Shown in pieces: positions 10,370 to 48,912 of a stretch of 64,000 bases of DNA. The stretch lies in IMG/VR virus record IMGVR_UViG_3300011113_000747, positions 62,001 to 126,000 of that record; one strand, given 5' to 3'. A program made the translations under genes and the position numbers. The stretch's first letter is position 1, and each line of letters starts with the position of its first letter. Under the pieces are notes generated by a model. It ran no database searches, was not told where the DNA came from, and worked only from the letters and a program-made list of their open reading frames with translations. The stretch comes from a virus.

Positions 10370-12946
10370 ATGTCTTATAGAAACTGTTTTTACGATAATA
10401 ATAATCGATCAGTAGAACTCTTTGCGTGGGATAAAGACGGTAATCGTGTTCGTTATACTGTATCTCACGACCCTTATTTATACCTTGAAGACCCTAAAGG
10501 TGAAAGCACATCGATTTACAATACTAAATTGAAGAAGAAAGTGTTTCGTAATGGTTACGAACGCAGTAAATTTCTTCGTGATAGTGGTATCAGGAGGGTG
10601 TTTGAAAACGTACCCCCAGCTCAGCAATACTTGCTTGATACATTCTGGCGTGATAATGAAAAGCCAGAATTTACGCAGCATCCAATTAAGATCTGCTTTA
10701 TAGATATTGAAACCTATTCTGTTGACTCATTTCCAAATCCAGAAGATCCTACTCATGAGGTGACCGTTATTACTTGTTATGATAGTTTGAGTAAAAAGTT
10801 TCATACATTTGGTATTAAGCCATACAATGGCTCAAACAAAACTGTAAAGTATACTCATTGTAAAAATGAGAGGGAATTGTTCATAAAATTCATTGAGTAT
10901 TTGAAAAAGGATTATCCAGATATTATGTCTGGGTGGAACTCTGAGTTCTTTGATATTCCGTACATCATTAATCGTTGTACTAGAATTTTAGGTGAAGAAT
11001 ATACTAAAGGGTTATCACCTCTTGGACGTGTACATTATCGCGATATAGTTGGTAAGTTTGGTATGCAACAGCGTCGTTATTATATCGATGGTATTTCGAT
11101 TCTTGACTACTTGGATATTTACAAACGTTTCTGCTTTAAAGAACGTGATAGTTACAAGCTCGATAACATTGGTGAAATCGAACTTGGTGAGAAGAAGGTT
11201 AATTTAAATGGTATGTCTCTTGCTCAGTTAACAGATACTGATTGGGATACATTTATTGATTATAACATTCAGGACGTTAATATCGTTGTTCGTCTTGAGG
11301 AGAAGCTGCAGTATGTTAACTTATTGAGGATGTTATCTTATGCTGGGTTGTGTACGTTTGAACAAGCAATGGGTACATTGTCTGTGATCAATGGTGCTTT
11401 ATGTATCAAAGCTCGTGAAATTGGTAAAGTTATTTCAACTTTTATTCGTAATGATCCTGATAGTGTTAACCCAGGGGCTTATGTTGCAGAACCTAGAGGG
11501 GGATTTCAAGAGAAGATTATTTCGTTTGACGCAAACTCTCTGTATCCGAACGTGATGATTTCACTTAATTTATCTCCTGAAACTAAAGTGGGTAAGTTTG
11601 AGAAGGTTGATGATGACAACTATGTTGTGAGACATGTAAGTGGTAAAACGTTCAATCTTACCAAGACAAGATTTGCTGAACTTATTAAAGCAGAAGAGCT
11701 TGCAATTACAAAAGCAAACTTCTTGTTTACTCAAAAGTTTAAAGGTATTGTTCCATTATTTGTTGATCACTTTTATAACAAGCGTGTTGAAATTAAGAAA
11801 GAACTCCAAAAGTATAAAGTTGAGTTGAGTAAACTTAAGAAAGGTACTGCTGATTATAAACGTGTATCTGATATGGTTGATAAACTTAATGCGCATCAGA
11901 TGTGTGTGAAAGTTTTGATTAACTCTTGTTATGGATATTTTGGTAATAAGCAAGCGCCTATTGGAGATGATGATATTGCATCGTCTGTTACGCTAACAGG
12001 TCAGGCAGTTATCAAAGAATCAAATACACTTATCAAGGAATATCTCAAAAATAATGTTACTAACATTACAGATAGGGACTTAGAGGAAGCTATCATTTAT
12101 AACGATACAGATTCTTCTTATGTATCCATTAAGTCTCTCTTCAAAGACAATAAAATACAGTTCATTGATAAAGATGGGAATCTTACCAAAGAAACTCATG
12201 AGCAAGTGCAAAACATTGAAAACTTTCTTAATGAAAAGATTAAGATTTGGGGTAAAAAAGCTCTCAATTCAAAAGATTGTCGATTTGTTTTCAAACGTGA
12301 AAGCATTGGTGATGTTGGTATTTTCTTGCAGAAAAAACGTTATGTTTTACATGTACTAGATGATGAAGGTATTCCTTGTAGTAAGTTCAAGTATACCGGA
12401 GTTGAAGTTGTGCGTACAACAATGCCAAACGCAATTAAACCTTATGCTAAGAAGATTATTGAGACGATGATGCTCACAAAATCTCAAGCAGAAACAAATA
12501 GGGTGTTAAATGAAACGTACGATATCTTTAAGAGTTTGACTATTCAGGATATTGCATTTGTTATGGGATTGAAAGGTTATGATAAATATGCAGTTAAATG
12601 TAGGGAGTTTGAAACTGCAAAGTCAATGCCATTGCATGTAAAATCTAGTTATTATTACAACCTACTTCTTGATAAATTTAAACTTAATAACAAGTATGAG
12701 ACTTTATCATCTGGTGATAAAGTTAGATACATTTACGTAGAAACTCCAAATAAATACATGCTTGAATCAATTGCATTTAAAAATGAATTCCCTGAAGAGT
12801 TTAATCAGCTTTTTAAGGTAGATTATGATAAGATGTTTGAGAAGATTCTTTTTCAAGCAATTGAACGTTTTTATGAAGCAGTTAACTGGACTGTACGTAA
12901 ACCGAAAGATAATGTGCAAACAGAATTATTTGATTTGTTTGGTTGA
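10370..12946 (+). CDS. 43: family B DNA polymerase gp43
   Basis: The product is 858 residues (T4 gp43 has 898) and is complete. The 3'-5' exonuclease domain shows Exo I FIDIETY (about residue 109), Exo II region GWNSEFFDIPYI (about 186) and Exo III YNIQDVNIV (about 299). The polymerase domain has motif A SFDANSLYPNVM (about 385-396), motif B region NSCYGYFGNKQAP (about 519) and motif C YNDTDSSYV (about 577-585), so both active sites look intact. The C-terminal tail QTELFDLFG is a good PCNA-box-like peptide for binding the sliding clamp gp45. It is transcribed from its own early-type promoter. Confidence 0.97.
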   Translation: MSYRNCFYDNNNRSVELFAWDKDGNRVRYTVSHDPYLYLEDPKGESTSIYNTKLKKKVFRNGYERSKFLRDSGIRRVFENVPPAQQYLLDTFWRDNEKPEFTQHPIKICFIDIETYSVDSFPNPEDPTHEVTVITCYDSLSKKFHTFGIKPYNGSNKTVKYTHCKNERELFIKFIEYLKKDYPDIMSGWNSEFFDIPYIINRCTRILGEEYTKGLSPLGRVHYRDIVGKFGMQQRRYYIDGISILDYLDIYKRFCFKERDSYKLDNIGEIELGEKKVNLNGMSLAQLTDTDWDTFIDYNIQDVNIVVRLEEKLQYVNLLRMLSYAGLCTFEQAMGTLSVINGALCIKAREIGKVISTFIRNDPDSVNPGAYVAEPRGGFQEKIISFDANSLYPNVMISLNLSPETKVGKFEKVDDDNYVVRHVSGKTFNLTKTRFAELIKAEELAITKANFLFTQKFKGIVPLFVDHFYNKRVEIKKELQKYKVELSKLKKGTADYKRVSDMVDKLNAHQMCVKVLINSCYGYFGNKQAPIGDDDIASSVTLTGQAVIKESNTLIKEYLKNNVTNITDRDLEEAIIYNDTDSSYVSIKSLFKDNKIQFIDKDGNLTKETHEQVQNIENFLNEKIKIWGKKALNSKDCRFVFKRESIGDVGIFLQKKRYVLHVLDDEGIPCSKFKYTGVEVVRTTMPNAIKPYAKKIIETMMLTKSQAETNRVLNETYDIFKSLTIQDIAFVMGLKGYDKYAVKCREFETAKSMPLHVKSSYYYNLLLDKFKLNNKYETLSSGDKVRYIYVETPNKYMLESIAFKNEFPEEFNQLFKVDYDKMFEKILFQAIERFYEAVNWTVRKPKDNVQTELFDLFG

Positions 12947-13404: not shown

Positions 13405-14526
13405 ATGGACAAAGAATTAAAAGCTGCATTAGATAGTATTGACGAAATTAACCCATACGCAACATATCTCGATAAGAACTCCCTTAGTTTAGTAGATGGT
13501 TGGATTGATACAGGATCGATGGTGTTAAACGCTCTCATCTCTGGTAAATTAGATGGAGGTATTCCAAAGGGTCGAGTTACTCTTTTAGCTGGTGAATCAA
13601 TGACTGGTAAGTCTCTTTTTGTACAAAAGATTCTTGCTCGAGCTCAGCGTCAAGGTTTAACTCCGGTTATCTTTGATACTGAAAATAGTATTGACCCTGA
13701 AGGTGCATCTCGCTTAGGACTTGATGTTTCAAAGGTAAAATATGTACCTTCCGTTACAATTGAAGAAACAAGAAATGCCATCTTCAAATTTTTAACTAAC
13801 GTTAAAGCAAAAGGTCTTGAAGGTAAATTTATTATTGCTATTGACTCGTTGGGTAACCTTCAATCACAGCAAGAAATGAATCGAATGGAGAAAGAGAGTA
13901 CATCTGCTGATATGGGTAGTGCAGCTCGTGCTATGAAGTCACTTCTTAAGACTTGCAATAATATGGGTGCTCTCACTAAAACAACCATTCTTTGCACGAA
14001 TCATGTGTATGATGATCCATCTGCAATGTTCCCATCACTTGAAAAACATATGCCTGGTGGTAAGTCTGTGACTTATCTACCATCTGTTTCTGTTCAGTTA
14101 GCTCGTAAGCCATTAAAAGATGATGGTGGTAAGACATTTGATAGTAACATGGTTGCTGGTCAGAAGAATTACTCTGGTGTGATTATTCGTGCTCTTACAC
14201 GTAAGAATCGTTTTATTAAACAGTACCTTGAAGCTGAGATGTACTTAAGCTTCTCAACGGGATTAGATAAATACTACGGTCTTCTTGATCTTGCAGTGGG
14301 TATGGGTGCTGTTATTCAAAATGGTTCTACTTATGCTCTACCAGACGGAACTAAGCTCGGTTATTACAAATCATGGCGTAAAGATTCTGACGTTTGGGAT
14401 CAGATTTTACCTAAACTTCAAGAAGAAATCACCAAAAATTGGGCATATAGTGAAGGTGAATCATCAGCTAATGATGTTGATGAAATTGATGAACTTGACG
14501 AAATGGAGGATAACGAAAATGAATAA
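13405..14526 (+). CDS. uvsX: UvsX RecA-like recombinase
   Basis: The product is 373 residues (T4 UvsX about 390). It forms ATP-dependent filaments on single-stranded DNA and drives strand exchange for recombination-dependent replication. Walker A is GESMTGKS (about residues 63-70); a Walker B-type strand FIIAIDSLGNLQ follows near 148-159, then the DNA-binding loop region with MEKESTSADMGSAARAMKS. The C-terminus is very acidic (DVDEIDELDEMEDNENE), as expected for regulation of DNA binding. It overlaps the thioredoxin gene by 8 nt and is co-transcribed with it and queC. Confidence 0.93.
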   Translation: MDKELKAALDSIDEINPYATYLDKNSLSLVDGWIDTGSMVLNALISGKLDGGIPKGRVTLLAGESMTGKSLFVQKILARAQRQGLTPVIFDTENSIDPEGASRLGLDVSKVKYVPSVTIEETRNAIFKFLTNVKAKGLEGKFIIAIDSLGNLQSQQEMNRMEKESTSADMGSAARAMKSLLKTCNNMGALTKTTILCTNHVYDDPSAMFPSLEKHMPGGKSVTYLPSVSVQLARKPLKDDGGKTFDSNMVAGQKNYSGVIIRALTRKNRFIKQYLEAEMYLSFSTGLDKYYGLLDLAVGMGAVIQNGSTYALPDGTKLGYYKSWRKDSDVWDQILPKLQEEITKNWAYSEGESSANDVDEIDELDEMEDNENE

Positions 14527-14788
14527 TATCAAACTACTATATTTTAGTGCACCGTGGTGTGGTCCATGTAAAATGTTTAAACCTGTAATTGAGCAGTTTA
14601 AACAAAAACAAACTGAATGTGATGTTCAAATTATTGACATTGAAGAGAATGAAGATCTTGGTAAACAATACAGTATTAATGCTGTACCCACATGCATCAT
14701 TCTTAAAAATGACAAAGAAGTATCTCGCTTTTCTGGCATGAAAGGTATTTCGTATATTGAATCTCTCGTAGACGAAGCTAAAATCTAA
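14519..14788 (+). CDS. thioredoxin
   Basis: The product is 89 residues from the ATG at 14519. The frame is open from 14285, but that part is the shadow of uvsX. A GGAGG sits 9 nt upstream at 14506-14510, one of the few Shine-Dalgarno sequences here. It has the thioredoxin fold with the active site APWCGPCKMFKP (about residues 11-22) and the cis-proline loop AVPTC (about 60). It would act as a protein disulfide reductase, for example for a phage ribonucleotide reductase, or as a polymerase-type accessory as in T7; the sequence does not decide. It sits between uvsX and queC in one operon. Confidence 0.92.
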   Translation: MNNIKLLYFSAPWCGPCKMFKPVIEQFKQKQTECDVQIIDIEENEDLGKQYSINAVPTCIILKNDKEVSRFSGMKGISYIESLVDEAKI

Positions 14789-14790
14789 TT

Positions 14791-15519
14791 ATGTCAAAAG
14801 TTGTACTAGCATTTAGTGGTGGAATGGACTCTTCAGTCTTGCTTCATATGGCAGCTGAAAAGTTTGATGAAGTGTATTGCTTATTCTTTGATTATGGTCA
14901 AAGACATAAGAAGGAACTTCAATGTGCAGAAAAGCAGCTGAAGAGTCTTAACGAAGGTGTTAAAATGTTGGTGATTGATACACCACTAAATGTTCTTGCT
15001 CCAACCTCATCTCTTACTAATCTGGATATCGATACCCCAGATGTAAGAGAGATGAGAGGTGAGGCTCAACCTAAGAGTTATGTACCATTTCGCAATATGC
15101 TGTTTATCTCATACCTTTTGTCATATGCAGAGGGAGTGGGTGCAGATGCTGTTTGGTATGGTGCAGCTCAAGTTGACTCATTAGCTGGCTATTGGGATGG
15201 AAGTCCAGAATTTTTAAAAGAGATCAATGATGTAGCTGCTTTGAACCGTGAACATCGTATTGTTGTTGAAGCACCGCTTCTTACAATGTCAAAAGCAGAT
15301 ATCATCTTAGAAGGTATTAGACTTGGAGTTAAGTTTAGTGATACTTGGACTTGTTATGCAGGTGAAGAAAAAGCAGATGCATATTCACCTTCCTCAAGTT
15401 TGAGATTACAAGGATTTGCTTCAGCTGGATATATCGATCCAATTCCTTACAAACAAGATTTAAGGAATGTTTGGAAGCAAAATAACTGTAAGAAGATTCC
15501 TTACGAAACTTATCTGTAA
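14791..15519 (+). CDS. queC: QueC-like 7-cyano-7-deazaguanine synthase with altered zinc site
   Basis: The product is 242 residues. QueC converts carboxy-deazaguanine to preQ0 with ATP and ammonia. The PP-loop AFSGGMDSS (about residues 7-15) and the family segment VPFRNMLFISYLLSYAEGVG (about 98-117) are clear. The usual zinc site is a Cys after TWS/TWT followed by C-x2-C-x2-C; here only the first (C188 in TWTCYAG) is present and the rest reads ADAYSPSSS, so three zinc ligands are missing. In phages such as 9g, QueC fused to a glutamine amidotransferase gives deoxyarchaeosine in DNA. A separate amidotransferase lies 1.1 kb downstream. Its stop overlaps a convergent minus-strand gene by 10 bp. 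Confidence 0.85.
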   Translation: MSKVVLAFSGGMDSSVLLHMAAEKFDEVYCLFFDYGQRHKKELQCAEKQLKSLNEGVKMLVIDTPLNVLAPTSSLTNLDIDTPDVREMRGEAQPKSYVPFRNMLFISYLLSYAEGVGADAVWYGAAQVDSLAGYWDGSPEFLKEINDVAALNREHRIVVEAPLLTMSKADIILEGIRLGVKFSDTWTCYAGEEKADAYSPSSSLRLQGFASAGYIDPIPYKQDLRNVWKQNNCKKIPYETYL

Positions 15520-16550
15520 TACATCTCTTGCTGCATCATCTTCTGATGATATGTCTTAGCTTTGATGTCTTTGTTAGCCACATACTTAATTTTAGGTCTG
15601 TGGCTTTCCTTTACAATCTCTTCTTCATCTTCGAATGGATTTGCTAAACGTCTAGCAGAATCATCTTGAGCAATTGTACCCATTCCATAACCTTGAGTAT
15701 CAATACCAGATCTCATTGATTTAGTTTTAGGTTTTTCTGCTTTATCCTCAAATTCAAAATAACCTGGAGCGTGTACAATAACTTCAAATTCATCTACATC
15801 CAATCCAAGAGCTTTACCTAAAGATGCTTTGATAGATGCTTCGACTTTACCAGCACCTAGCTTGTTAACAATTTTAGTAATAGGTGTTTCTTCACCAAAC
15901 TCTAAGTCAACGCTATTTGAACTACCAACATCAACATCAAATTGTTGATTTTTGTTAGCAGCATTAAAGAACTTTTGGATCTTTTCAATATCTAGTGGTA
16001 TTTCTTGATCTGAAACAATTTCAATAATGGAAGACTTAGCGTCAATTGGTGATGTTGGTGAAATATCATCTGCTGCAGCTTTTTGCGCATCCTTTTTAGC
16101 TTGTTTTTCAGCTGCCATTTCTTCTGGTGTTTTAACTTTACCGAATTGCTCGAAATCCTGTTTTGTTTCAAAAGTTTTACCAATATTTTCACCCTTACCT
16201 CTTGATCTAACTTGCTGTTTACGTTGCAAGAATGAACTTAAGTTACCTTCCATATATTGCTTAAATTCGTCAGCAATTTCGTCTTTAATGACACCACTAT
16301 CGACGAGGTTCTTAATAAATTCACCAGCTTCAGCTGCATATCTTGAACCAGCAAATGCAGTACCTTCTGGTACCATTCCCTTTTCTTTCAAGAAATTGAT
16401 AATAAATTCAAAAACGATTGGTCTAGCAATACCGATCTTTTTATCTTCGATAGCTTTTTTAAGGTAACCTGTATTAAAAAGCTTATCAAAGCGACCTGCT
16501 CTAGCTTCTTCAAGGATTTCTAATTTATTAACAAGGGAATTGAAATTCAT
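15510..16550 (-). CDS. late protein with capsid-targeting-like N-terminus
   Basis: The product is 346 residues, family not recognised. The N-terminus MNFNSLVNKLEILEEARAGR carries I-L-E-E-A, a candidate gp21-type cleavage site, and a late box lies exactly 5 nt upstream of the ATG. The body is helical up to about residue 110, followed by a basic linker (RKQQVRSRGKG) and an Ala/Lys/Glu-rich stretch (about 135-165). The C-terminal part has beta character (FEVIVHAPGYFEFE) and ends in a basic helix with MMQQEMYYR. Likely a virion head or core component; it is convergent with queC. Confidence 0.7.
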   Translation of the reverse strand: MNFNSLVNKLEILEEARAGRFDKLFNTGYLKKAIEDKKIGIARPIVFEFIINFLKEKGMVPEGTAFAGSRYAAEAGEFIKNLVDSGVIKDEIADEFKQYMEGNLSSFLQRKQQVRSRGKGENIGKTFETKQDFEQFGKVKTPEEMAAEKQAKKDAQKAAADDISPTSPIDAKSSIIEIVSDQEIPLDIEKIQKFFNAANKNQQFDVDVGSSNSVDLEFGEETPITKIVNKLGAGKVEASIKASLGKALGLDVDEFEVIVHAPGYFEFEDKAEKPKTKSMRSGIDTQGYGMGTIAQDDSARRLANPFEDEEEIVKESHRPKIKYVANKDIKAKTYHQKMMQQEMYYR

Positions 16551-16555
16551 AGAAT

Positions 16556-16563
16556 TATTTATT
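16556..16563 (-). promoter_or_regulatory. late promoter box AATAAATA
   Basis: Minus-strand late octamer, 5 nt before the ATG at 16550. It abuts the -35 box of the divergent early promoter for the amidotransferase gene. Confidence 0.7.
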
Positions 16564-16589
16564 GTTTTTTATCTATTAACGTCTATATT
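16562..16589 (+). promoter_or_regulatory. sigma-70-type promoter of amidotransferase gene
   Basis: TTGTTT at 16562-16567, 16-nt spacer, TATATT at 16584-16589, then 9 nt to the ATG at 16599. It overlaps the late promoter facing the other way by two bases. Confidence 0.55.
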
Positions 16590-16598
16590 TAATATATT

Positions 16599-17300
16599 AT
16601 GTGCGCGATATTTGGATCGACAGATCAATCAATGTTTGAAATATTATTTGAAGCTAATAAAGTAAGAGGTACTTTTGCTTCATCATTAGTAACACTAATG
16701 AAAAATCCAGTTGGTCAAGTTGATGATGTTACAATTCGTAAAGAGCAGGGATTATATTCGTTTGAAAAACTAAAACTCAAACCAAAAAATCATGCTTACT
16801 ATATGGGCCATGTACAGGCTCCTACATCGTCAGCTAGAAAATACAATTATGATACATCACATCCATTTGAGCAAGAAGATTGGCTTGTGTTTCATAATGG
16901 TGTGTTAACTAATCATGAAAGTTTAAATGCAGTTTATTGTAAATGGAATGAAAATCCTGTAGATACATCAGTTATTCCATGTATGCTTCAAGAAAAGTGG
17001 AATGAACTTAAAGAAGGTAAAGCTAAAGCTTCTTCTACTGATGAAGTCAAGATAATTGAAACAATCTGTGAACGACTTCAAGGAACATTTGCTCTCTGTA
17101 TTGTTAACACAACGACCCTTAACGTCTACTTAACTAGACAAGGTAGTACATTATTCTACGACGACAAAGGTAACTACTCTTCAATCAAAGGTAAAACGAT
17201 GGAAGAAGTACCAGAAGGTAAAATTCTCAAACTAACAAAAGATTTCACATTCAAAGCAGTAGGTAAATTCAAACCAAGTTCTCCATTTTTAATCATATGA
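16599..17300 (+). CDS. class II glutamine amidotransferase (Gat partner of QueC)
   Basis: The product is 233 residues and consists only of an N-terminal-nucleophile glutamine amidotransferase domain. It begins MCAIFG, which places the catalytic Cys at position 2 as in GlmS and asparagine synthetase. GHVQAPTS (about residues 68-75), HPFEQ (about 88) and FHNGVLTNHESL (about 98-109) match the glutamine-binding motifs. The domain would release ammonia from glutamine. No synthase domain is attached. Phage Gat-QueC fusions use such a domain to amidate preQ0, and queC is 1.1 kb upstream, so a split Gat/QueC system is the most economical reading. An unrelated sugar or peptide amidation role cannot be excluded, since the next gene is a glycosyltransferase overlapping by ATGA. 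Confidence 0.85.
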   Translation: MCAIFGSTDQSMFEILFEANKVRGTFASSLVTLMKNPVGQVDDVTIRKEQGLYSFEKLKLKPKNHAYYMGHVQAPTSSARKYNYDTSHPFEQEDWLVFHNGVLTNHESLNAVYCKWNENPVDTSVIPCMLQEKWNELKEGKAKASSTDEVKIIETICERLQGTFALCIVNTTTLNVYLTRQGSTLFYDDKGNYSSIKGKTMEEVPEGKILKLTKDFTFKAVGKFKPSSPFLII

Positions 17301-17950
17301 TCGCATTCGTATCAGCAACCAAAGGTGACCCAACCAAAACATTACTTTATAATAGCACAAAAGATATTCTAGAGGTAGCTTGGGCAGCAAACAATACAGA
17401 CCCACTCCCTGTCGTCTATAATGACGCTATTGCGGACTTTACAATTACAGATTATGACTGGGTTGTATTTGTTCATGACGATGTTATCATTGAATCACCA
17501 GAAGCTATTGAGAGACAAATTTATAATCTTGGTGTTGAATTTGATGTCATCGGTGTAGCAGGTACCAGAGAGGTAAAATTACAAGAACCAGCATTGTGGC
17601 ATCTTATGGGTGATAGAAAACATCACAGAGGAGCTGTAGCACACTTGTGTGAATCTACAGGTAAAAAGTTTATGACCAGTTTTGGTAGCTATCCTGATAG
17701 GGTTGTACTTATCGATGGTGTGTTTATGGCTGCTAAAACAGAAGTACTTCAAAAAGTTAGTTTTGATGAAACCAATCCTGCTGGGTTTCACTTTTATGAT
17801 CTAGACTTTTCTATGGCATGTCATAAGGCTGGTTACAGGGTTGGTGTGGGTGATATAACAATCACACACGCATCACCTGGATTACGACAATTCATAGATG
17901 AATGGAAGAAGGGGCAAGATTGGTTCCTTAATAAATGGGTAACAAAATAA
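17297..17950 (+). CDS. GT-A type glycosyltransferase
   Basis: The product is 217 residues. The fold looks like a small family-2-like (StrF/Glyco_tranf_2_5 type) transferase: an N-terminal FVSATKGDP strand, then WVVFVHDDVIIES (about residues 54-66) with the HDD metal-nucleotide motif, LIDGVFMAAKTEVL (about 138-151), and FHFYDLDFSMACHKAGYRVGV (about 162-182) with the acceptor-site acidic residues. Such proteins are common in marine T4-like phages. The acceptor is unknown. It overlaps the amidotransferase gene by 4 nt and is followed at once by a strong terminator. Confidence 0.8.
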   Translation: MIAFVSATKGDPTKTLLYNSTKDILEVAWAANNTDPLPVVYNDAIADFTITDYDWVVFVHDDVIIESPEAIERQIYNLGVEFDVIGVAGTREVKLQEPALWHLMGDRKHHRGAVAHLCESTGKKFMTSFGSYPDRVVLIDGVFMAAKTEVLQKVSFDETNPAGFHFYDLDFSMACHKAGYRVGVGDITITHASPGLRQFIDEWKKGQDWFLNKWVTK

Positions 17951-17982: not shown

Positions 17983-19242
17983 TTATGCTAATATCTGCTC
18001 TATTGGTTCAGCCTCGTAAACCACCTCAACTGGTCTTAAATCTGGAGTCATCAACTTTGTTCTTGGTGATATACCAATTAAATGGAACATTGTAGCAGCA
18101 AATTGCTGCGGTGTAACTGGATCTGAGTCAGGCTCTGAAGCTAATGCATCAGACGTACCATAAGCATAACCTGCTTTAACACCACCACCAGCTAAAACTG
18201 TTGAGAATACCTTTGGCCAATGGTCTCTTCCGTTTGTAGCATTAATTTTAGGTGTACGACCAAACTCAGATGTCACCATTACAAGGGTTGAATCAAGTAA
18301 TCCACGTTGTTTTAAGTCATTAATAAAGGTTGCAAAGGCTTTATCAAAGTTAATCATATTAGATTCATATGCACCTTTAAGATTTGAGTGGTGATCCCAT
18401 GAACCATACGTTACTGTAACCATTCTTACACCTGCTTCAACAAGACGACGAGCTAGAAGTAAACGTTGACCAGCAGCATTACGGCCATATGCATCGCGAA
18501 CCACATCAGGCTCTTTAGAAAGCTCAAAAGATTCACGAGCTTGTGTTGATGATAACATTGAATATGCATCATTATAGAAAGAATCCATTGCTTTTACTGC
18601 ATCTACGTTTGATTCACGTGTTTTGAAGTAATCATCCACCGCTCCAAGCAATGCACGGCGACGATCTAATTGTTTATCGGAAACATCCTTAGGTGTATTG
18701 AGGTCTTTCACAACAAATCCCGGATCTTCTGGATTAGAACCTAAAGCAAACGGTCCATACTTGGTAGACAAGTAACCGGTGCCGTTTTCAGGTGCAAACT
18801 GATTAGGAACTAACACATAAGCAGGTAGATTGTTACGATTTCCTAATTCATGGCTAATAACACTACCAAATGATGGGTAGTTTAATGCTGGAGATGGTTT
18901 ATAACCAGTGAGCATGTTATGTGTTCCTCTTTCATGAGCTGCTTCACCGTGAGTCATTGAACGAATTACTGTAAGATTGTCAGAGACCTTTGCTGTTTCC
19001 TTTAGAAGTTCACCAAAATGAACACCATCTATCTTTGTCTTAACAGGAGCAAATGGTCCTCTATATTCTGGTGAGCCATTTACCTTATAATCCCACGAAT
19101 CTTGATGTGAAATACCACCAGGTAAGTAGATTTGAACTACTGATGTAGCTTTTGCAGGTGTTTGTGCTTGAGCTTTTAATAATTGTGGTAAACTTACACA
19201 ACCAGCAGCACCAATTCTTAGAATTTCACGTCTGTTATACAT
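17983..19242 (-). CDS. DUF1501 family exported protein, copy 1
   Basis: The product is 419 residues. DUF1501 (PF07394) proteins are sulfatase/alkaline-phosphatase-like and abundant in Planctomycetes and Verrucomicrobia; their substrate is unknown. The N-terminus has a twin-arginine signal (NRREILRIGAAG, about residues 3-14) followed by a hydrophobic stretch and an AQAQTPA-type cleavage region. Family motifs seen are YLPGGISHQDSWD (about 38-50), SMTHGEAAHERGTHNMLTGY (about 97-116), SWDHHSNLK and TSEFGRTPKIN followed by GRDHWPKVFS, then AGGGVKAGYAYG. The late box 5 nt upstream of the ATG shows it is a phage late gene. It is unlike its neighbours in origin and is probably host-derived. It differs considerably from copy 2 at 26660-27895. 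Confidence 0.92.
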   Translation of the reverse strand: MYNRREILRIGAAGCVSLPQLLKAQAQTPAKATSVVQIYLPGGISHQDSWDYKVNGSPEYRGPFAPVKTKIDGVHFGELLKETAKVSDNLTVIRSMTHGEAAHERGTHNMLTGYKPSPALNYPSFGSVISHELGNRNNLPAYVLVPNQFAPENGTGYLSTKYGPFALGSNPEDPGFVVKDLNTPKDVSDKQLDRRRALLGAVDDYFKTRESNVDAVKAMDSFYNDAYSMLSSTQARESFELSKEPDVVRDAYGRNAAGQRLLLARRLVEAGVRMVTVTYGSWDHHSNLKGAYESNMINFDKAFATFINDLKQRGLLDSTLVMVTSEFGRTPKINATNGRDHWPKVFSTVLAGGGVKAGYAYGTSDALASEPDSDPVTPQQFAATMFHLIGISPRTKLMTPDLRPVEVVYEAEPIEQILA

Positions 19243-19247
19243 ACTCT

Positions 19248-19255
19248 TATTTAAT
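19248..19255 (-). promoter_or_regulatory. late promoter box ATTAAATA
   Basis: Minus-strand late-type octamer 5 nt before the ATG at 19242 of the DUF1501 gene. Predicted leaderless late transcript. Confidence 0.6.
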
Positions 19256-19289
19256 TATCTACTCAAAAAATTAAAAATCCACTTTTATC

Positions 19290-19317
19290 TTGATATTAGA
19301 ATGTAATAAACTATCAT
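19290..19317 (+). promoter_or_regulatory. sigma-70-type promoter of gene 41
   Basis: TTGATA at 19290-19295, 16-nt spacer, TATCAT at 19312-19317, then 6 nt to the ATG at 19324, which places +1 on the A of the start codon. Confidence 0.72.
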
Positions 19318-19323
19318 AAAGAG

Positions 19324-22798: not shown

Positions 22799-23313
22799 GT
22801 CCAGAAGAAATTGAACAACAAAAAATGCTACTCAATTTAATGGGTAGCATTTATGGTGAAGCCAAAAAGATTGATCAAAATCTAGTTGGTACATCTCTTA
22901 ATTTGAGACCTCAAAGTGAGAACGTCAAGCAGTTGTTCGAGGGTGCGCTGAGATCTACTCAGCCACCCGCTCCACCACCACAACCGCAGATTGTGCATGT
23001 ACCACCACCTAATACTGTTAATTTACCGCATGTTGTACAACCAGCACAAGAATCTAAACCAATTCAATTAGTTGACAATTCAGATCTTGTATCTACATTA
23101 AAAGGTATTGAAAGCAATCTTGGTAAGTTGGTAGAATTATTCACACAATATGAAGTTAAAGTTAAAAAAGCAACAAATCGAAAAGTTTCTAGAGTCTCTG
23201 GCGAAGATAAACGACCAGTGCATAGTGAAAGTGGAGAAGGACAAGATATCGTCGATAGTAACATCGACGGACAACACGTTGATCCTTTACGCAACTCTAA
23301 ACCATACGAATGA
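22795..23313 (+). CDS. hypothetical protein overlapping gene 45
   Basis: The product is 172 residues, not recognised. It has an N-terminal helix (about residues 1-55), a Pro-rich linker with PPAPPPQPQIVHVPPP (about 57-72), a short helix GIESNLGKLVELF (about 105-117) and a charged C-terminus. Its last 55 codons share 164 bp with the start of the sliding clamp gene in another frame, so that stretch codes for two proteins. It is coupled to gene 32 by an ATGA overlap. Confidence 0.65.
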   Translation: MSPEEIEQQKMLLNLMGSIYGEAKKIDQNLVGTSLNLRPQSENVKQLFEGALRSTQPPAPPPQPQIVHVPPPNTVNLPHVVQPAQESKPIQLVDNSDLVSTLKGIESNLGKLVELFTQYEVKVKKATNRKVSRVSGEDKRPVHSESGEGQDIVDSNIDGQHVDPLRNSKPYE

Positions 23314-23860
23314 ATCCGAAAGATCCTTGTGTATACCGGATTTAAAAAAGCTTAATCGTGTTTTAGACTGTATTAGTAGTGATGAAATTGAACTCCAAGT
23401 TAATCAAAATAACTTGGAGTATAAGTCTCCAGAGATAAAGTTTAAGTATCACCTATTTGAAGATGATTTTATTACACCTCCTTCAATTAAACCAGATAAA
23501 ATTATGTCTTTCGAGACTGATTTTACCTTTGAACTAATGAAAGATGACTTTAGTAAAATCAATAAAGCTTCAACATTTACAACTGAAACGAATAAGATTT
23601 ATTTTTATTTAGAAGATGGGGTTGTTAAGTGTGAACTTACAGATAAAGCTAGACATAATACAGATTCATTTCAATTACAGGTTGGTAAAAATATAGCAGG
23701 AGCTGAATTGAAGAATTTACCTGTTAATTTTGATAATTTCAAACTTATCAATTCAGATAACGTTAAAGTGTCTATTAATAACAGATACGGCGTACTTATA
23801 TTTGATATTGATCAGGAGCCGCTTAAATTAAGATATATTTTATCATCACTTACTCAATAA
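23150..23860 (+). CDS. 45: sliding clamp gp45
   Basis: The product is 236 residues (T4 gp45 has 228). gp45 is the trimeric ring that tethers DNA polymerase and also activates late transcription with gp55. The N-terminal start MKLKLKKQQIEKFLESLAKI mirrors MKLSKDTTALLKNF of T4, followed by the repeating beta-alpha pattern of a clamp. Segments such as KIYFYLEDGVVKCELTDKA (about 149-167) and YGVLIFDIDQEPLKLRYIL (about 213-231) match the second domain. The clamp loader gp44 is 36 kb away in this window. The start lies within the preceding gene, an unusually long overlap. Confidence 0.78.
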   Translation: MKLKLKKQQIEKFLESLAKINDQCIVKVEKDKISSIVTSTDNTLILYATLNHTNESERSLCIPDLKKLNRVLDCISSDEIELQVNQNNLEYKSPEIKFKYHLFEDDFITPPSIKPDKIMSFETDFTFELMKDDFSKINKASTFTTETNKIYFYLEDGVVKCELTDKARHNTDSFQLQVGKNIAGAELKNLPVNFDNFKLINSDNVKVSINNRYGVLIFDIDQEPLKLRYILSSLTQ

Positions 23861-23861
23861 T

Positions 23862-24215
23862 ATGGAATCCACATTAACATATCAAGACAAAAACAAACTC
23901 AAAACACCAGGATATTTTATCAAACGTCTCAAGGACAGTGGTATTATTACTCTCAGAGTGTTCCAAACATATGGAATGTCTGATCCTCGTAAGTGGACTA
24001 TTCTTGTAGACCCAGGTGTAGCATCAGTTTATGTTACATGCTATCAGAATAAAGAAAAGTTAAATGAAATTATGTTTGAAATTGATGATGGTGGTGTGAG
24101 ATTTCCTCGCAACTACTTTATTAAAACTCATTCTATTGAAGTTATTGTTGAATATCTTCTCGAAAAGGGTATTGCACAATATGATAAAAGCAACCCGTTC
24201 TACAAAAAGGACTAA
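23862..24215 (+). CDS. conserved hypothetical protein next to gene 45
   Basis: The product is 117 residues. It begins 1 nt after the gene 45 stop. It looks like a compact alpha/beta protein with FIKRLKDSGIITLRVFQTYG (about residues 19-38), DPRKWTILVDPGVASVYVTC (about 41-60) and a C-terminal helix. I cannot name the family or a function. Its tight coupling to the clamp suggests a replication or late-transcription role. Confidence 0.65.
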   Translation: MESTLTYQDKNKLKTPGYFIKRLKDSGIITLRVFQTYGMSDPRKWTILVDPGVASVYVTCYQNKEKLNEIMFEIDDGGVRFPRNYFIKTHSIEVIVEYLLEKGIAQYDKSNPFYKKD

Positions 24216-24217
24216 AT

Positions 24218-24586
24218 ATGTTTATGAGTGATGAACCTAAAAGGCGTAAAAAGAAAAAAACCACGCCACCAGCTCCAAAACAGGAAACTGAATGGGTACC
24301 ATCTGATAATGATGTAAGAGACTTAATTAATAGCATTCTTTCCAACAGAATAAAAGAAGTTAAGAAAATTAAAGACGTTGAGGATATTAATAATGCTCTC
24401 GTTTGCACAATAAGTGAGTTTCTTGATAGTTTTATGATATTAGGATACAATAGTGAAGGTATACCTATTGCTTTAACAAAAGCTAACACACCTCTTGATG
24501 CAGATGCGTTACATTCTCTTTTAGTTAAGTTCTTTTCAATTCAAATGGTTAAATTTAATGGTAAATATGGTGGGGAAGATTTTTAA
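24218..24586 (+). CDS. small helical protein with basic N-terminus
   Basis: The product is 122 residues (an ATG two codons downstream at 24224 is also possible). The N-terminus is basic and low complexity (KRRKKKKTTPPAPK); the rest is helical with DVEDINNALVCTISEFLDSF (about residues 52-71) and MILGYNSEGIPIALT. No family is recognised with certainty. A small transcription co-activator in the manner of T4 gp33 is conceivable because gp55 and gp45 are both present and gp33 is not otherwise seen, but this is a guess. Confidence 0.6.
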   Translation: MFMSDEPKRRKKKKTTPPAPKQETEWVPSDNDVRDLINSILSNRIKEVKKIKDVEDINNALVCTISEFLDSFMILGYNSEGIPIALTKANTPLDADALHSLLVKFFSIQMVKFNGKYGGEDF

Positions 24587-24863: not shown

Positions 24864-26651
24864 ATGAAAAAACTCATCTTATTACTAGTAAGTATATGCA
24901 CCTTATCATTTGGTGCTACATTAGAACAGCTTAATAACTATAGTGGTTGGGTTGATTCTGTGTTACAAAAACAATATGTAGCTGCTAATGTTCAACCTCT
25001 TGGTAGGGTTAATGACGATACTTTTGTTCGTCGTGCATATCTTACAATTATTGGTAGAAACCCCACATACGAAGAGTATGAAATGTTCAATAAGGCGACT
25101 GATCCTAATAAAAGACAAGGATTAATTCAGTTTCTTATTAATCACCCTGGTTATACATCACATATGTTTAACTTTTGGGCTGAGTCGTTAAGATTGCGTG
25201 ATAGAATCAACACCACCAATAACTTCTCTGGTGGTCCTTATATTGATTATGTGAAGGATTCTATTGCAGCTAATAAATCTTATTCGAAATTTGTTACAGA
25301 TCTATTAACAGCAACAGGTTCTTATTACGATAATCCAGCTACTGGCTATTTCTATCGTGATTTAGGAATGCCTTTAGATAATCTAATTGGCACAGGTAAA
25401 GTGTTTATGGGTACTGATATTGGATGCGCACAATGCCATGATGATCCGTTCCAAGACTTCACTCAAATGCAGTTCTATAAGATGGCTGCTATGTTTAATC
25501 AGGTAGAACTTAGAGGTCGTGGAAGAGATAAAGACCCAGCTGTTGCAGCTCGTCAAAAAGCATTGAGAGAAGAAATTGATGCTTTGATTAAAGCTGATCC
25601 AATGAAGAATCGTGGATTGAACAATACAATTAATAACTTTGTTGCTGCTATGAGAGCTAATCTTGAAGTAGATGAAAAGCGCGAACTAAAACTACCACAT
25701 GATTACAACTACAAAGATGCAAAGCCATTTGATACAGTTGTACCTGCAGTTCTTTCTGGTAAAACAGAGATTAAAAACAAAGACGACATGAGAAAAGATG
25801 TTGTTGCTTGGTTGGTTAACCCAGAACACCCAACATTCACAAAGAACATTGTGAACCGTTACTGGAAATGGGTGTTCGGTAAGCATATCATCGAAGATTA
25901 TGATAATATCTATGATGATGAAAAGCTTAATAGTGAGCTTATGAATACACTTGCTGCAATTATGGTAAGTGTAAATTATGATACCAAACAGTTCATGTAT
26001 GTATTATACAATACCAAGTTATTTCAACGTGAACTCTACGATGGTGCATATTCAAATTCAGATAAGTTTGTGTTTATTGGACCAGTTAAACAACGTTTAA
26101 CTGCAGAGCAGATGTGGGATTCAGTTATTTCTATTGCTCTTGATAAACCAGATACATTCAAATTGACTTTCCAAGATGAATATGTAAAAGTAATGAGATA
26201 TTCATTAGAAGATCTCACTATTGATAAATTAAAAGCAAAGAATGAGGAATATCAGAAGATTATTCGTTCAAAATACGAGACTGCTCCAAAATATCGTAAT
26301 TACCCTCTTGTAAGAGCATCAGAGGTTAATGATAATGGACCCGTTAATACTATTCTTGAACAGCTTGGTCGTAGTGATCGTGAATTAATTGACACTTCAT
26401 CACGAGAAGGTTCAGTTACACAGGTTATTTCTTTCATGAACGGTCAATTAGCTGAAGTAGCAGTCAACAAAGAGACAAACCTTGCAAAGTTACTTGCAGG
26501 TAAGTCTCCAACCGATACCATTGATATTATCTTTAAGTCTGTATTAGTAAGAAGACCAACAATTGATGAAAAATCTAAGTTTGTTGGTGTGCAGGACGAT
26601 GATATCATCTGGGCACTAGTAAACAGTTCGGAGTTCAAATTCAATAAATAA
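24864..26651 (+). CDS. DUF1549/DUF1553 c-type haem-motif secreted protein
   Basis: The product is 595 residues. It begins with a Sec signal peptide (KKLILLLVSICTLSFGA, about residues 2-18). DUF1549 (PSCyt2) follows, including FVRRAYLTIIGRNPTYEEYE and the conserved CAQCHDDPF at residues 188-196, where C-x-x-C-H is a covalent haem c site. DUF1553 (PSD1) covers about 300-580, with WLVNPEHPTFTKNIVNRYWK (about 313-332) and a later AEQMWDSV segment. In PVC bacteria these proteins are nearly always encoded next to a DUF1501 gene, as here, and are usually longer because of an added PSCyt1 domain. The function is unknown even in bacteria. A late box precedes it. It is flanked on both sides by phage replication genes, so it belongs to the phage genome. 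Confidence 0.93.
   Translation: MKKLILLLVSICTLSFGATLEQLNNYSGWVDSVLQKQYVAANVQPLGRVNDDTFVRRAYLTIIGRNPTYEEYEMFNKATDPNKRQGLIQFLINHPGYTSHMFNFWAESLRLRDRINTTNNFSGGPYIDYVKDSIAANKSYSKFVTDLLTATGSYYDNPATGYFYRDLGMPLDNLIGTGKVFMGTDIGCAQCHDDPFQDFTQMQFYKMAAMFNQVELRGRGRDKDPAVAARQKALREEIDALIKADPMKNRGLNNTINNFVAAMRANLEVDEKRELKLPHDYNYKDAKPFDTVVPAVLSGKTEIKNKDDMRKDVVAWLVNPEHPTFTKNIVNRYWKWVFGKHIIEDYDNIYDDEKLNSELMNTLAAIMVSVNYDTKQFMYVLYNTKLFQRELYDGAYSNSDKFVFIGPVKQRLTAEQMWDSVISIALDKPDTFKLTFQDEYVKVMRYSLEDLTIDKLKAKNEEYQKIIRSKYETAPKYRNYPLVRASEVNDNGPVNTILEQLGRSDRELIDTSSREGSVTQVISFMNGQLAEVAVNKETNLAKLLAGKSPTDTIDIIFKSVLVRRPTIDEKSKFVGVQDDDIIWALVNSSEFKFNK
26643..26650 (+). promoter_or_regulatory. late promoter box AATAAATA
   Basis: Late octamer 9 nt before the ATG at 26660; it overlaps the last codons and stop of the DUF1549/1553 gene. 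Confidence 0.6.
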
Positions 26652-43087: not shown

Positions 43088-43960
43088 TTATGCGAAGAAG
43101 TCACTACCAACTTTACCTGTCTTTGTCTGGCCTTTTACCTTGTTACCACCCTTTTCACCCATATCTGGCTTCTTAGCATTAACAAGAGCGTGACCAATAT
43201 CACCTGCATCACCCTTTACCTCATCGGTATATTTACCATCACCACCGTTACCACCACTTGGCTTAAGCTTCATGTTAACTTTGTTATTGCCTTTTTCACC
43301 CATGTTTGGCTTCTTAGCATTTACAAGGACGTGGCCCATTTCTTCTTCATCTTCTTCAAGTGAATCGGATTCAAAATCCATTTCATCACCACCTTCTTCA
43401 CCCATTTCTTCACCCATGTCTTCCATTTCGGTTTCACCTTCACCGATGACACCCATAAGCACGTCATGAAGCTGCTTAGCGAGATCCTTAGAAAGGGTAA
43501 TTGTGACTGTATCTTCTTCACCACCCATTTCATCACCACCTGCATCATCCTCGATACCAAGTGCGTCAAGTTCCATTGATTCAGCGTCCTCACCACCCAT
43601 GGAGTCAGACATTACGTTTTCGTATAATTTATCAAAAATAGATTTGCTCATAAAGTTATTTATTGCTCTTTGTGATGATTTTTCAACAATTTCTTCATCT
43701 TCTTCTGCAGTAAGTGTATTTCCTACATAGATGTTATCTTCATCTTCTTTCTTGGAAATTTTATTAGGGTCAATCTCAGCTGGTTTGAATCCACCTTTTT
43801 CTGTTGGACCTCCATCTTGTAGCTTTGCTGCGTCCTTATCGTTCAATTCTTTAGCACCAGGACCTTGCTTTTTAGGAAGAGTTTTTTCCTCAACAACTTT
43901 AACGCTATTGAGCATACTACCGTATATCTTACCTAAATTCATTAGAGATTTTTTTGACAT
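43088..43960 (-). CDS. acidic head/core-type protein with duplicated motif
   Basis: The product is 290 residues, very acidic in the middle (runs of Glu, Asp, Gly and Met at about residues 120-210) like T4 prohead core proteins. Residues about 103-118 (FMSKSIFDKLYENVMSDS) look like an internal targeting helix. A TITLSKDLAKQLHDVLMGVI helix follows. Two near-identical units GHxLVNAKKPxMGEKGxNKV occur at about 210-230 and 255-275. Likely a prohead core or internal head protein. A late box lies 6 nt upstream. Confidence 0.7.
   Translation of the reverse strand: MSKKSLMNLGKIYGSMLNSVKVVEEKTLPKKQGPGAKELNDKDAAKLQDGGPTEKGGFKPAEIDPNKISKKEDEDNIYVGNTLTAEEDEEIVEKSSQRAINNFMSKSIFDKLYENVMSDSMGGEDAESMELDALGIEDDAGGDEMGGEEDTVTITLSKDLAKQLHDVLMGVIGEGETEMEDMGEEMGEEGGDEMDFESDSLEEDEEEMGHVLVNAKKPNMGEKGNNKVNMKLKPSGGNGGDGKYTDEVKGDAGDIGHALVNAKKPDMGEKGGNKVKGQTKTGKVGSDFFA
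43137..43338 (-). repeat. imperfect direct repeat, two copies
   Basis: Copies at about 43137-43199 and 43280-43338 share long matches such as GGCTTCTTAGCATT and code for the duplicated VNAKKP-MGEKG unit of the acidic head protein. It is an intragenic duplication rather than a mobile element. Confidence 0.7.
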
Positions 43961-43966
43961 ATAATT

Positions 43967-43974
43967 TATTTAGT
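43967..43974 (-). promoter_or_regulatory. late promoter box ACTAAATA
   Basis: Minus-strand late octamer, 6 nt before the ATG at 43960; touches the stop of the upstream gene. Confidence 0.7.
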
Positions 43975-44189
43975 CAGAAACGAATAAAAACACAAGTAAA
44001 TGAGTTAGTTTCATCCATTTTTGACATATGTACAAGCATGTAACCGTACTTTTTGATTTCTTTCCTTAAAGTTGGAAATCTTTCCTTATGAATATTAATA
44101 ATAATACTTTTATGTATATCATCATAAAGTACCGTATCTGTGAATTCCTCACAGACTGCAACCACTCGCGAAACAAGTGCATTAGTCAT
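43974..44189 (-). CDS. small hypothetical protein
   Basis: The product is 71 residues, not recognised. It is an alpha/beta sequence with VVAVCEEFTDTVLYDDIHKS (about residues 9-28) and YGYMLVHMSKMDETNSF (about 48-64). The late box 6 nt before the ATG and the tight packing against neighbours support that it is a gene. It is divergent from the terminase gene with 17 bp between the start codons. Confidence 0.6.
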   Translation of the reverse strand: MTNALVSRVVAVCEEFTDTVLYDDIHKSIIINIHKERFPTLRKEIKKYGYMLVHMSKMDETNSFTCVFIRF

Positions 44190-44190
44190 A

Positions 44191-44196
44191 TATAAT
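44191..44196 (+). promoter_or_regulatory. -10 box TATAAT before terminase
   Basis: TATAAT 10 nt before the ATG at 44207. No -35 box is visible. It shares its last base with the minus-strand late box at 44196-44203, all within a 17-bp intergenic space. Confidence 0.4.
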
Positions 44197-44203
44197 ATTT
44201 AGA
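44196..44203 (-). promoter_or_regulatory. late promoter box TCTAAATA
   Basis: Minus-strand late octamer, 6 nt before the ATG at 44189. Confidence 0.6.
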
Positions 44204-44206
44204 GAT

Positions 44207-45898
44207 ATGTCAGGTCCCATAAAAAAGAAACAAACTTACTTAAATAACCCAAACCTACCAACTTCTGGTGCAGTATTTGAATATACCCCAAAGATGGTAA
44301 AGGAAATCAAGAAGTGTTCTCAAAACATATTACATTTTGCAGAAGAGTATTTCTTTATTGTTCACCCTGATAAAGGTAGAATGAAAATACCTCTTAGACC
44401 TTACCAGAAGAGAGTACTAAGAAAGATGAGAGACAACAGATTCTTCATTCTTCTTTCACCACGTCAGTCAGGTAAGTCAACCATGTATACTATTTACTCT
44501 TTGTGGCATGCATGTTTTGAAGCTGATAAGCGTGTTGTTATTGTAGCTAACAAAGAGGCAACTGCAATTGAAATCTTCAAACGTATTAGATTAGCTTATG
44601 AGGAACTACCTAACTGGTTAAAACCGGGTGTTGAAGAGTATGGAAAAACTTCTATGAAGTTAGCTAATGGTTCTGAAATCGGTATTTCAACCACAACAGG
44701 AAGCGCAGCTCGTGGTATGTCTATTTCCTTATTATTCATTGACGAGCTTGCATTCATTGAGCCTGGGTTGATGGAAGATTTTTGGAAATCCGTTTACCCT
44801 ACAATTTCCTCAGCTGAAAAAGCAAAGATCTTTATTGCATCAACACCTAATGGTACAGGAAATCTTTTCCATAAGTTATGGATGGGTGCAATGAAGGGTG
44901 ATAATGGGTTTGGTTTTGATGAAATTAAATGGGATGAACCACCAAGACGAGATGAAGCGTTTAAAAAGAAGACCATTGAAAACCTAGGTTCATATGAAGC
45001 TTGGTTACAAGAATATGAGTGTGTTTTCCTTCAGCATGGTGATGGTGCTATTGACCATGAATATTTTGATAAGTTAATTAAGAGTGCTAAACAACCAGTG
45101 GAGATTTATGAAAATGGTTGTTATAGAATTTTTGAACCACCACGACCTGAACGAATTTATGCAGCTGGTGTGGATACAGCAGAAGGTATCGGAAAAGATT
45201 ACTCCGTTATTAATATATACGATTTAACTGACCTTTCTAACATTGAGCAGGTAGCTGTTTATTCAAACAATAAGATATCACCTTACGATTTTTCCACAAA
45301 AGTACCTGAAATATTAGCACAATGGGGTAAACCACTTGCATTAGTTGAACGAAATGGTGTTGGAGCTCAGATTGCCGATGCTTTGAGGAACAGATTTTCC
45401 TATGAACGTCTTGTAAACTGGGGTGGTCAACTAGCTAACCGTAAACAACAAAATGGTATGATTTGCCATTCCAACACTAAAGGAAAAGCTGTTACCAATA
45501 TGAGGTATTGGGTATCAGAGCTCAAGTGTGTGAAGTTAAATGATTTAGAGACGATTAGAGAGTTCCGTGATTTTATTAGATATCCTAATGGTACATGGGC
45601 TGCTAAAGATGGTTGTAATGATGATAAGGTGATGTCTACTATATGGGCTCTAATGGCACTTTATGAGGATATTTGCCAGGTGTACTTTGAAATAGCTGAG
45701 ACAGATGATAATAATAAACCTAAAAAACTTGTGGTTACTGATTTCGGAATGAACCTAATGGTTAATCCAAAGTCACTTTATGGTGATAATGAGTTATTTA
45801 AAAATGATATCTTTACACTACCTTGTGTATTTGGTATGGGTGATCAGGTTTACAGTGATATAAATATGTTAGAAGACGAAGGTTGGGCTATACTATGA
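44207..45898 (+). CDS. 17: terminase large subunit gp17
   Basis: The product is 563 residues (T4 gp17 has 610). It is the ATP-driven motor that packages DNA into the prohead and cuts concatemers. The ATPase domain has LRPYQKRVLRKM (about residues 63-74), Walker A SPRQSGKST (about 84-92), Walker B LLFIDELAFIEP (about 175-186) and the coupling motif STPNGTGN (about 210-217). The nuclease domain begins near residue 320 with AAGVDTAEGIGKDYSV, containing the first metal Asp, then ALVERNGVG and later GCNDDKVMS acidic residues. It overlaps the next gene by ATGA. Confidence 0.95.
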   Translation: MSGPIKKKQTYLNNPNLPTSGAVFEYTPKMVKEIKKCSQNILHFAEEYFFIVHPDKGRMKIPLRPYQKRVLRKMRDNRFFILLSPRQSGKSTMYTIYSLWHACFEADKRVVIVANKEATAIEIFKRIRLAYEELPNWLKPGVEEYGKTSMKLANGSEIGISTTTGSAARGMSISLLFIDELAFIEPGLMEDFWKSVYPTISSAEKAKIFIASTPNGTGNLFHKLWMGAMKGDNGFGFDEIKWDEPPRRDEAFKKKTIENLGSYEAWLQEYECVFLQHGDGAIDHEYFDKLIKSAKQPVEIYENGCYRIFEPPRPERIYAAGVDTAEGIGKDYSVINIYDLTDLSNIEQVAVYSNNKISPYDFSTKVPEILAQWGKPLALVERNGVGAQIADALRNRFSYERLVNWGGQLANRKQQNGMICHSNTKGKAVTNMRYWVSELKCVKLNDLETIREFRDFIRYPNGTWAAKDGCNDDKVMSTIWALMALYEDICQVYFEIAETDDNNKPKKLVVTDFGMNLMVNPKSLYGDNELFKNDIFTLPCVFGMGDQVYSDINMLEDEGWAIL

Positions 45899-46470: not shown

Positions 46471-46489
46471 AAAAATAAAGTTGCCAAAA

Positions 46490-46497
46490 CATAAATA
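46490..46497 (+). promoter_or_regulatory. late promoter box CATAAATA
   Basis: Late octamer 5 nt before the ATG of the tail sheath gene (46503). Confidence 0.72.
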
Positions 46498-46502
46498 TCT
46501 GT

Positions 46503-48893: not shown

Positions 48894-48899
48894 TGGGTA

Positions 48900-48907
48900 A
48901 CTAAATA
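48900..48907 (+). promoter_or_regulatory. late promoter box ACTAAATA
   Basis: Late octamer 5 nt before the ATG at 48913 of the tube gene. Confidence 0.7.
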
Positions 48908-48912
48908 TTATT

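What the first reader, a model, noticed from the sequence alone, without database searches (positions are those of the whole stretch)
14791..17300. Split amidotransferase and QueC suggest 7-deazaguanine DNA modification
QueC at 14791-15519 and a stand-alone class II amidotransferase (Cys2) at 16599-17300 correspond to the two halves of the Gat-QueC fusions known from phages such as 9g that carry deoxyarchaeosine. Here they are separate and expressed with uvsX and a glycosyltransferase. DpdA, FolE, QueD and QueE are not in the window.
Basis: partly seen in the sequence, partly recalled or inferred. Interest (0 to 1): 0.65.

Follow-up and report, generated by a model that had tools for sequence, protein, structure and literature searches.

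The report
Phage guanine-replacement pathway with split QueC
This T4-like virus of bacteria carries the genes to swap guanine in its DNA for a 7-deazaguanine base, with the usual QueC enzyme lacking its zinc site and paired with a separate ammonia-supplying protein, and an acetyltransferase placed where related viruses have a formyltransferase, which suggests a DNA base not yet described.

Summary
QueC (14791-15519) and a stand-alone class II amidotransferase, GAT (16599-17300), are real. The rest of the 184.5-kb virus record supplies what the window lacks: FolE, QueD, QueE, a bimodular QueF and a compact DpdA. The DpdA (genome 23088-23900) is 47% identical to that of Campylobacter phage CP220, whose guanines are fully replaced, and its model has the tRNA-guanine transglycosylase fold. 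So 7-deazaguanine DNA is very likely. The product is probably not deoxyarchaeosine. Split QueC+GAT is widespread in KVP40-like and marine T4-like phages. One of these, Vibrio phage 6E35.1a, carries the same pair plus QueF, and its DNA was measured as dPreQ1. GAT is best read as QueC's ammonia donor. Two less expected points: (1) QueC has lost three of four zinc cysteines across a supported clade of 25 phage sequences while keeping the other catalytic motifs; (2) the operon reads dpdA, GNAT, kinase, queF, and in relatives the GNAT slot is empty or holds a formyltransferase. All four known copies of this GNAT lie in that slot. This predicts N-acetyl-dPreQ1, a base I know of no report of. Chemistry is inferred; nothing was measured.

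The parts
14791..15519 (+). QueC-family ATP-dependent enzyme (242 aa), expected to make preQ0 from 7-carboxy-7-deazaguanine; SGGxDS, YGQRHxxE and VPxRN kept, YPDC reads YWDG, zinc cysteines 2-4 replaced by non-cysteines
   Evidence: motifs from PMC13329287
16599..17300 (+). GAT: stand-alone class II (Ntn) glutamine amidotransferase (233 aa), proposed glutaminase partner of QueC
   Evidence: near QueC in relatives
14519..14788 (+). thioredoxin-like gene between uvsX and queC; start overlaps the uvsX stop
13405..14526 (+). uvsX/RecA-like recombinase, upstream neighbour; same place in relatives
   Evidence: identity recognised from sequence and synteny, not by a family search
15510..16550 (-). 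346-aa protein of unknown family on the opposite strand between queC and gat; its slot is kept in relatives with other lengths
17297..17950 (+). glycosyltransferase (PF13712), overlaps gat by 4 bp; usually follows gat in T4-like relatives

Best explanation
The window holds the last step of a preQ0 pathway within a genome that encodes the whole route to a 7-deazaguanine base in DNA. Shown by sequence and structure comparison (genome coordinates; window = genome minus 62000): FolE 48741-49352, QueD 47913-48599, QueE 46347-47123, QueC 76791-77519, GAT 78599-79300, QueF 25007-25921, DpdA 23088-23900. Inferred mechanism: FolE, QueD and QueE turn GTP into 7-carboxy-7-deazaguanine (CDG). QueC activates CDG with ATP, and GAT hydrolyses glutamine and supplies the ammonia, as the glutaminase halves of AsnB and GMP synthetase do for their PP-loop partners. 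This gives preQ0. QueF reduces preQ0 to preQ1, which has a primary amine. The GNAT at 23897-24442 N-acylates that amine, most likely with acetyl. DpdA exchanges guanine in DNA for the finished or unfinished base, after replication and probably at nearly every guanine, as in its homolog-bearing relative CP220. My probabilities: 7-deazaguanine in the DNA 0.9; GAT serves QueC 0.75; QueF makes preQ1 0.8; GNAT acylates it 0.45.
For: All pathway enzymes are in one virus record. DpdA: 49.6% identity to immuto phage gp206 annotated DpdA and 47% to CP220; TGT fold, Z 18.1, 3.2 A over 237 of 270 residues. CP220 and CPt10 DNA is 100% dADG for dG (PMC8306585). QueF: TIGR03138 E 5e-78, with the ESKSxK segment and the SNC...QPDWG active-site segment aligned to Vibrio QueF 3bp1. 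GAT lies in the fetched locus in 57 of 83 QueC rows, with and without QueF, with DpdA2 or this DpdA. DpdA-kinase-QueF is the conserved core; the slot after dpdA is empty, formyltransferase or GNAT. The three other GNAT relatives found in IMG/VR all lie in that slot. No acyltransferase in 13 full DpdA loci without QueF against 16 of 48 with it (Fisher p 0.014, rows not independent). pN/pS 0.12-0.39 for all pathway genes tested.
Against: No measurement of this phage's DNA exists. The DpdA does not reach Pfam TGT or NCBIfam DpdA. Loss of the zinc cysteines could mean that QueC works differently. QueF scores just under the curated TIGR03138 cut-off. The GNAT's substrate is inferred from position and from the formyltransferase analogy alone. 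queC and gat are on separate transcription units.
Confidence: 0.72

Rival explanations
1. The split GAT+QueC acts like Gat-QueC of phage 9g and makes archaeosine (dG+) in DNA.
For: Same two enzyme classes; some loci have FolE-DpdA-QueC-GAT without QueF, where dG+ is plausible.
Against: A QueF with reductase-type segments is present. Vibrio phage 6E35.1a has DpdA2, QueF, QueC and the same stand-alone GAT and was measured as dPreQ1 at 15% of dG (PMC12028318). Sequence relation to Gat-QueC is remote.
Confidence: 0.1
2. The DNA carries plain dPreQ1; the GNAT acts on something else (a protein, a host metabolite).
For: Most DpdA-kinase-QueF loci have no acyltransferase; GNATs are common and versatile.
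Against: All known copies of this GNAT lie inside the deazaguanine operon, between dpdA and the kinase, exactly where others carry a formyltransferase.
Confidence: 0.35
3. GAT belongs to the glycosyltransferase next to it and amidates a sugar or surface glycan, not to QueC.
For: gat overlaps the PF13712 glycosyltransferase gene by 4 bp, and a glycosyltransferase usually follows gat in the T4-like relatives.
Against: In KVP40, nt-1, pf16, 6E35.1a and the FolE-DpdA-QueC-GAT loci, GAT follows QueC directly and the genes after it are not this glycosyltransferase.
Confidence: 0.12
4. The zinc-less QueC is no longer a preQ0 synthase but a repurposed ligase, as Cap9 and QatC are.
For: Zinc cysteines lost in a clade; QueC-family proteins have been repurposed in defence systems (PMC13329287, PMC13279940).
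Against: Cap9 and QatC motifs differ, and QatC keeps a zinc-site variant. Here the canonical non-zinc motifs, including Tyr189, are kept, and no other QueC is in the genome although all other pathway enzymes are.
Confidence: 0.07

Closest known systems
KVP40-like Vibrio phages (KVP40, nt-1, 6E35.1a, 1.081.O) and Pseudomonas phage pf16: folE-dpdA2-(queF)-queC-gat clusters
   Same: Stand-alone QueC followed by a stand-alone class II GAT (annotated hypothetical in most); FolE; a transglycosylase; QueF in most.
   Different: They use DpdA2 (no match in this genome) and keep the QueC zinc site; queC and gat are adjacent; no GNAT between dpdA and queF.
Flavobacterium phage immuto (DpdA, formyltransferase, kinase, QueF) and Campylobacter phage CP220/CPt10
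   Same: Same compact DpdA family (50% and 47% identity) followed by the same kinase family; QueF in immuto; immuto QueC also lacks zinc cysteines.
   Different: immuto has a formyltransferase where this phage has a GNAT, and no GAT was seen near its QueC; CP220 DNA is dADG and has no queF next to dpdA.
Gat-QueC fusion of 9g-like phages (JenP2)
   Same: Class II GAT plus QueC.
   Different: Fused in one 471-aa protein, zinc cysteines kept, 23-28% identity to the two window proteins, no QueF adjacent.

Membership tests
Canonical QueC (PF06508 cluster 1) | SGGxDS, YxQxHxxE and VPxRN motifs, plus Tyr189 (zinc region) and Tyr131 (YPDC) | tested here: met
   SGGMDS, YGQRHKKE, VPFRN, YWDG (Tyr kept) and TCY (Tyr kept); VPxRN reads VAFRN in four close relatives
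Canonical QueC (PF06508 cluster 1) | C(x)8CxxCxxC zinc site | tested here: not met
   Only the first Cys remains (TCYAGEEKADAYSPSSSLR); same in the 25-sequence clade. So it is a zinc-less variant, not a canonical QueC
Class II (Ntn) glutamine amidotransferase | N-terminal nucleophile Cys2, Arg, Asn-Gly oxyanion hole, Asp; Ntn fold | tested here: met
   Invariant C2, R23, N100-G101, D122 in 18 sequences; PurF/GlmS fold, Z 23
Gat-QueC (archaeosine synthase fusion) | GAT and QueC in one polypeptide | tested here: not met
   Two genes with an opposite-strand gene between
DpdA DNA transglycosylase, compact (CP220/immuto) family | Homology to this DpdA group and TGT barrel | tested here: met
   47-50% identity, TGT Z 18.1. 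The name DpdA3 for this group is from memory of Cui et al. 2023, which was not readable here
DpdA DNA transglycosylase, compact (CP220/immuto) family | Inserts a deazaguanine in DNA | not testable with these tools
   Needs expression and nucleoside LC-MS
QueF nitrile reductase (bimodular) | QueF_N and QueF modules, ESKSxK segment, catalytic Cys and Asp | tested here: met
   PF14819 E 5e-33, PF14489 E 7e-24; segments aligned to 3bp1
dPreQ1 acyltransferase (new function proposed for the GNAT) | Acetyl transfer to preQ1 or dPreQ1 | not tested
   GNAT fold by PF00583 E 2e-6; operon slot only

The most novel reading that the evidence does not exclude
This phage and its close relatives replace most or all guanines by 7-(acetylamino)methyl-7-deazaguanine, made by a GNAT that took the place of the preQ1 formyltransferase in the operon, with preQ0 produced by a zinc-free QueC fed with ammonia by a separate GAT.
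Probability: 0.38. Interest if true: 0.78.

Novelty: new variant of a known kind. Interest (0 to 1): 0.6.

Why it matters
It extends phage 7-deazaguanine DNA chemistry in two testable ways. First, a QueC lineage has dropped its zinc site while keeping the other catalytic motifs and gaining a partner glutaminase, although zinc is regarded as required for QueC (PMC13329287); that asks what the zinc is for. Second, an interchangeable acyltransferase slot in one operon (none, formyl, acetyl) would explain how phages diversify one base to evade restriction, and points to an undescribed DNA base. It also shows that stand-alone GAT genes annotated hypothetical in KVP40-like phages are probably pathway members.

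Tried and rejected
DpdA2 profile (four phages), Pfam TGT PF01702 and NCBIfam NF041059 found no transglycosylase; the DpdA was found by reading the operon around queF and then confirmed. Pfam radical SAM PF04055 missed QueE; blastp to nt-1/pf16 QueE and TIGR03365 found it. No solved-structure match by sequence for DpdA. No riboswitch at Rfam gathering level in 144 kb of the 184.5 kb; only tRNAs. Nucleotide-level incorporation without a transglycosylase: dropped once DpdA was found. A strict correlation of zinc loss with GAT: not seen (Zn+ and Zn- QueCs both have GAT); my regular expression scored pf16 as Zn-less by mistake, its sequence keeps CAKCPSC, so the tree needs three changes, not four. 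Cui et al. 2023 (NAR) was not held; what I say of DpdA3 and formylated dPreQ1 from it is memory.

Full report
Setting. The window is bases 62001-126000 of a 184,542-bp virus record. Genome coordinates below minus 62000 give window coordinates. G+C is 35%. Several ORFs are close to T4-type replication and structural genes, so I call it T4-like.

The two window genes. QueC (14791-15519) and GAT (16599-17300) are at the stated places. QueC reaches the curated cut-off of TIGR00364. GAT is weak by sequence, but its model is plainly a class II amidotransferase (PurF Z 23.2, GlmS Z 22.7) and the Ntn catalytic residues are invariant over 18 diverse relatives. queC follows uvsX and a thioredoxin gene closely. 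gat lies beyond an opposite-strand gene and overlaps a glycosyltransferase gene.

The rest of the pathway. Outside the window the same record encodes FolE at 48741-49352 (PF01227 E 1e-49), QueD at 47913-48599 (PF01242 E 4e-15), QueE at 46347-47123 (26% identity to nt-1 QueE, E 3e-21; TIGR03365 E 6e-11) and a bimodular QueF at 25007-25921. Standard transglycosylase models found nothing. Reading the genes before queF showed a 270-aa protein at 23088-23900. It is 49.6% identical to immuto phage gp206, annotated DpdA, and 47% to a hypothetical protein of Campylobacter phage CP220. Its model (pLDDT 87.7) matches tRNA-guanine transglycosylase over 237 of 270 residues (Z 18.1, 3.2 A). Asp55, Gln120-Gly121, Gly190 and Asp213 are invariant; they sit in segments that resemble TGT's catalytic segments (inference by motif). 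CP220 and CPt10 have all dG replaced by dADG (PMC8306585; it cites Crippen et al. 2019). So a transglycosylase of this group goes with full replacement at least there.

What the split pair means. Stand-alone GAT follows QueC in KVP40, nt-1, pf16 and Vibrio 1.081.O, and GAT lies in the fetched locus in 57 of 83 QueC rows of an IMG/VR sample, both with and without QueF. Vibrio phage 6E35.1a has queD-folE-dpdA2-queF-queC-gat (the GAT, annotated unknown, matches the GAT profile at E 2e-69), and a paper on what appears to be the same phage (6E351A) reports 15% of dG as dPreQ1 (PMC12028318). Hence this arrangement does not imply deoxyarchaeosine. The 9g-type fusion of JenP2 is a remote relative of both halves. 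The most economical role for GAT is the glutaminase of QueC.

Zinc loss. Canonical QueC binds zinc through C(x)8CxxCxxC, and zinc is regarded as required (PMC13329287). The window QueC keeps only the first Cys. A tree built without the zinc-motif region places it in a Zn-less clade of 25 sequences (SH-aLRT 97) beside Zn+ sequences with the same gene order. Losses also appear in L144 and in the immuto/L027/L169 group. The other motifs are kept and the genes are under purifying selection, so the enzyme is probably active.

The acyltransferase slot. Of 61 deduplicated DpdA loci with enough downstream sequence, 48 carry QueF within 3.5 kb, mostly as dpdA-kinase-queF. Between dpdA and the kinase there is nothing, a formyltransferase (PF00551, with a GHPG segment and a downstream Asp) or, in this genome and three others (L017, L018, L202), a GNAT. 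A scan of IMG/VR with the GNAT alignment found only those three relatives. No acyltransferase was seen in the 13 loci without QueF (p 0.014, not corrected for relatedness). A primary amine is what QueF makes and what both transferase classes use. I therefore propose N-acetyl-dPreQ1. Whether the GNAT acts on the free base or on DNA is open, and so is the acyl group.

Further pieces. A GMP reductase (18371-19321, NF003966 E 2e-92) and a phosphoribosyltransferase (12153-12614, PF00156) could remove the guanine set free by DpdA and so pull the exchange to completion. This is speculation: phosphoribosyltransferases lie in 21 and GMP reductases in 3 of 88 fetched DpdA loci, many of them truncated. 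The kinase that always accompanies DpdA-QueF (AAA_28, NadR-like) has no assigned role; this genome has a second copy at 43575-44321.

Limits. Loci were the best 80 per scan and are related to each other. The record is not shown to be complete. No nucleoside was measured. The DpdA3 name and formylated dPreQ1 as a reported base come from memory of a paper I could not open.

Noticed in passing
window 17983-19242 (-): DUF1501 protein (PF07394 E 2e-108) with a Tat-like N-terminus in the replication gene cluster, kept at 81-85% identity in all relatives that span the place; unusual cargo for a T4-like phage.
   Followed up: partly
genome 18371-19321 and 12153-12614 (L002): GMP reductase and a phosphoribosyltransferase; together they could clear guanine released by DpdA.
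   Followed up: partly
genome 24439-24999 (L003 4939-5499) and 43575-44321: P-loop kinase (AAA_28, NadR-like) that accompanies DpdA and QueF in nearly every locus, role unknown; a second copy lies near thyX and queE.
   Followed up: partly
window 17297-17950; L128, L131, L157: Glycosyltransferase overlapping gat; in some relatives an NAD-dependent sugar epimerase-like protein replaces or precedes it, hinting at a sugar modification of DNA or surface.
   Followed up: partly
L004 11788-19893: Cluster of 21 tRNA genes downstream of folE; none in the window.
   Followed up: no
window 15510-16550 (-), genome 60666-62536 (-): Several opposite-strand proteins begin with a short leader like FKQFILEQ or LEILEEA, which resembles T4 capsid-targeting sequences; they may be internal head proteins (recalled resemblance, not tested).
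   Followed up: no
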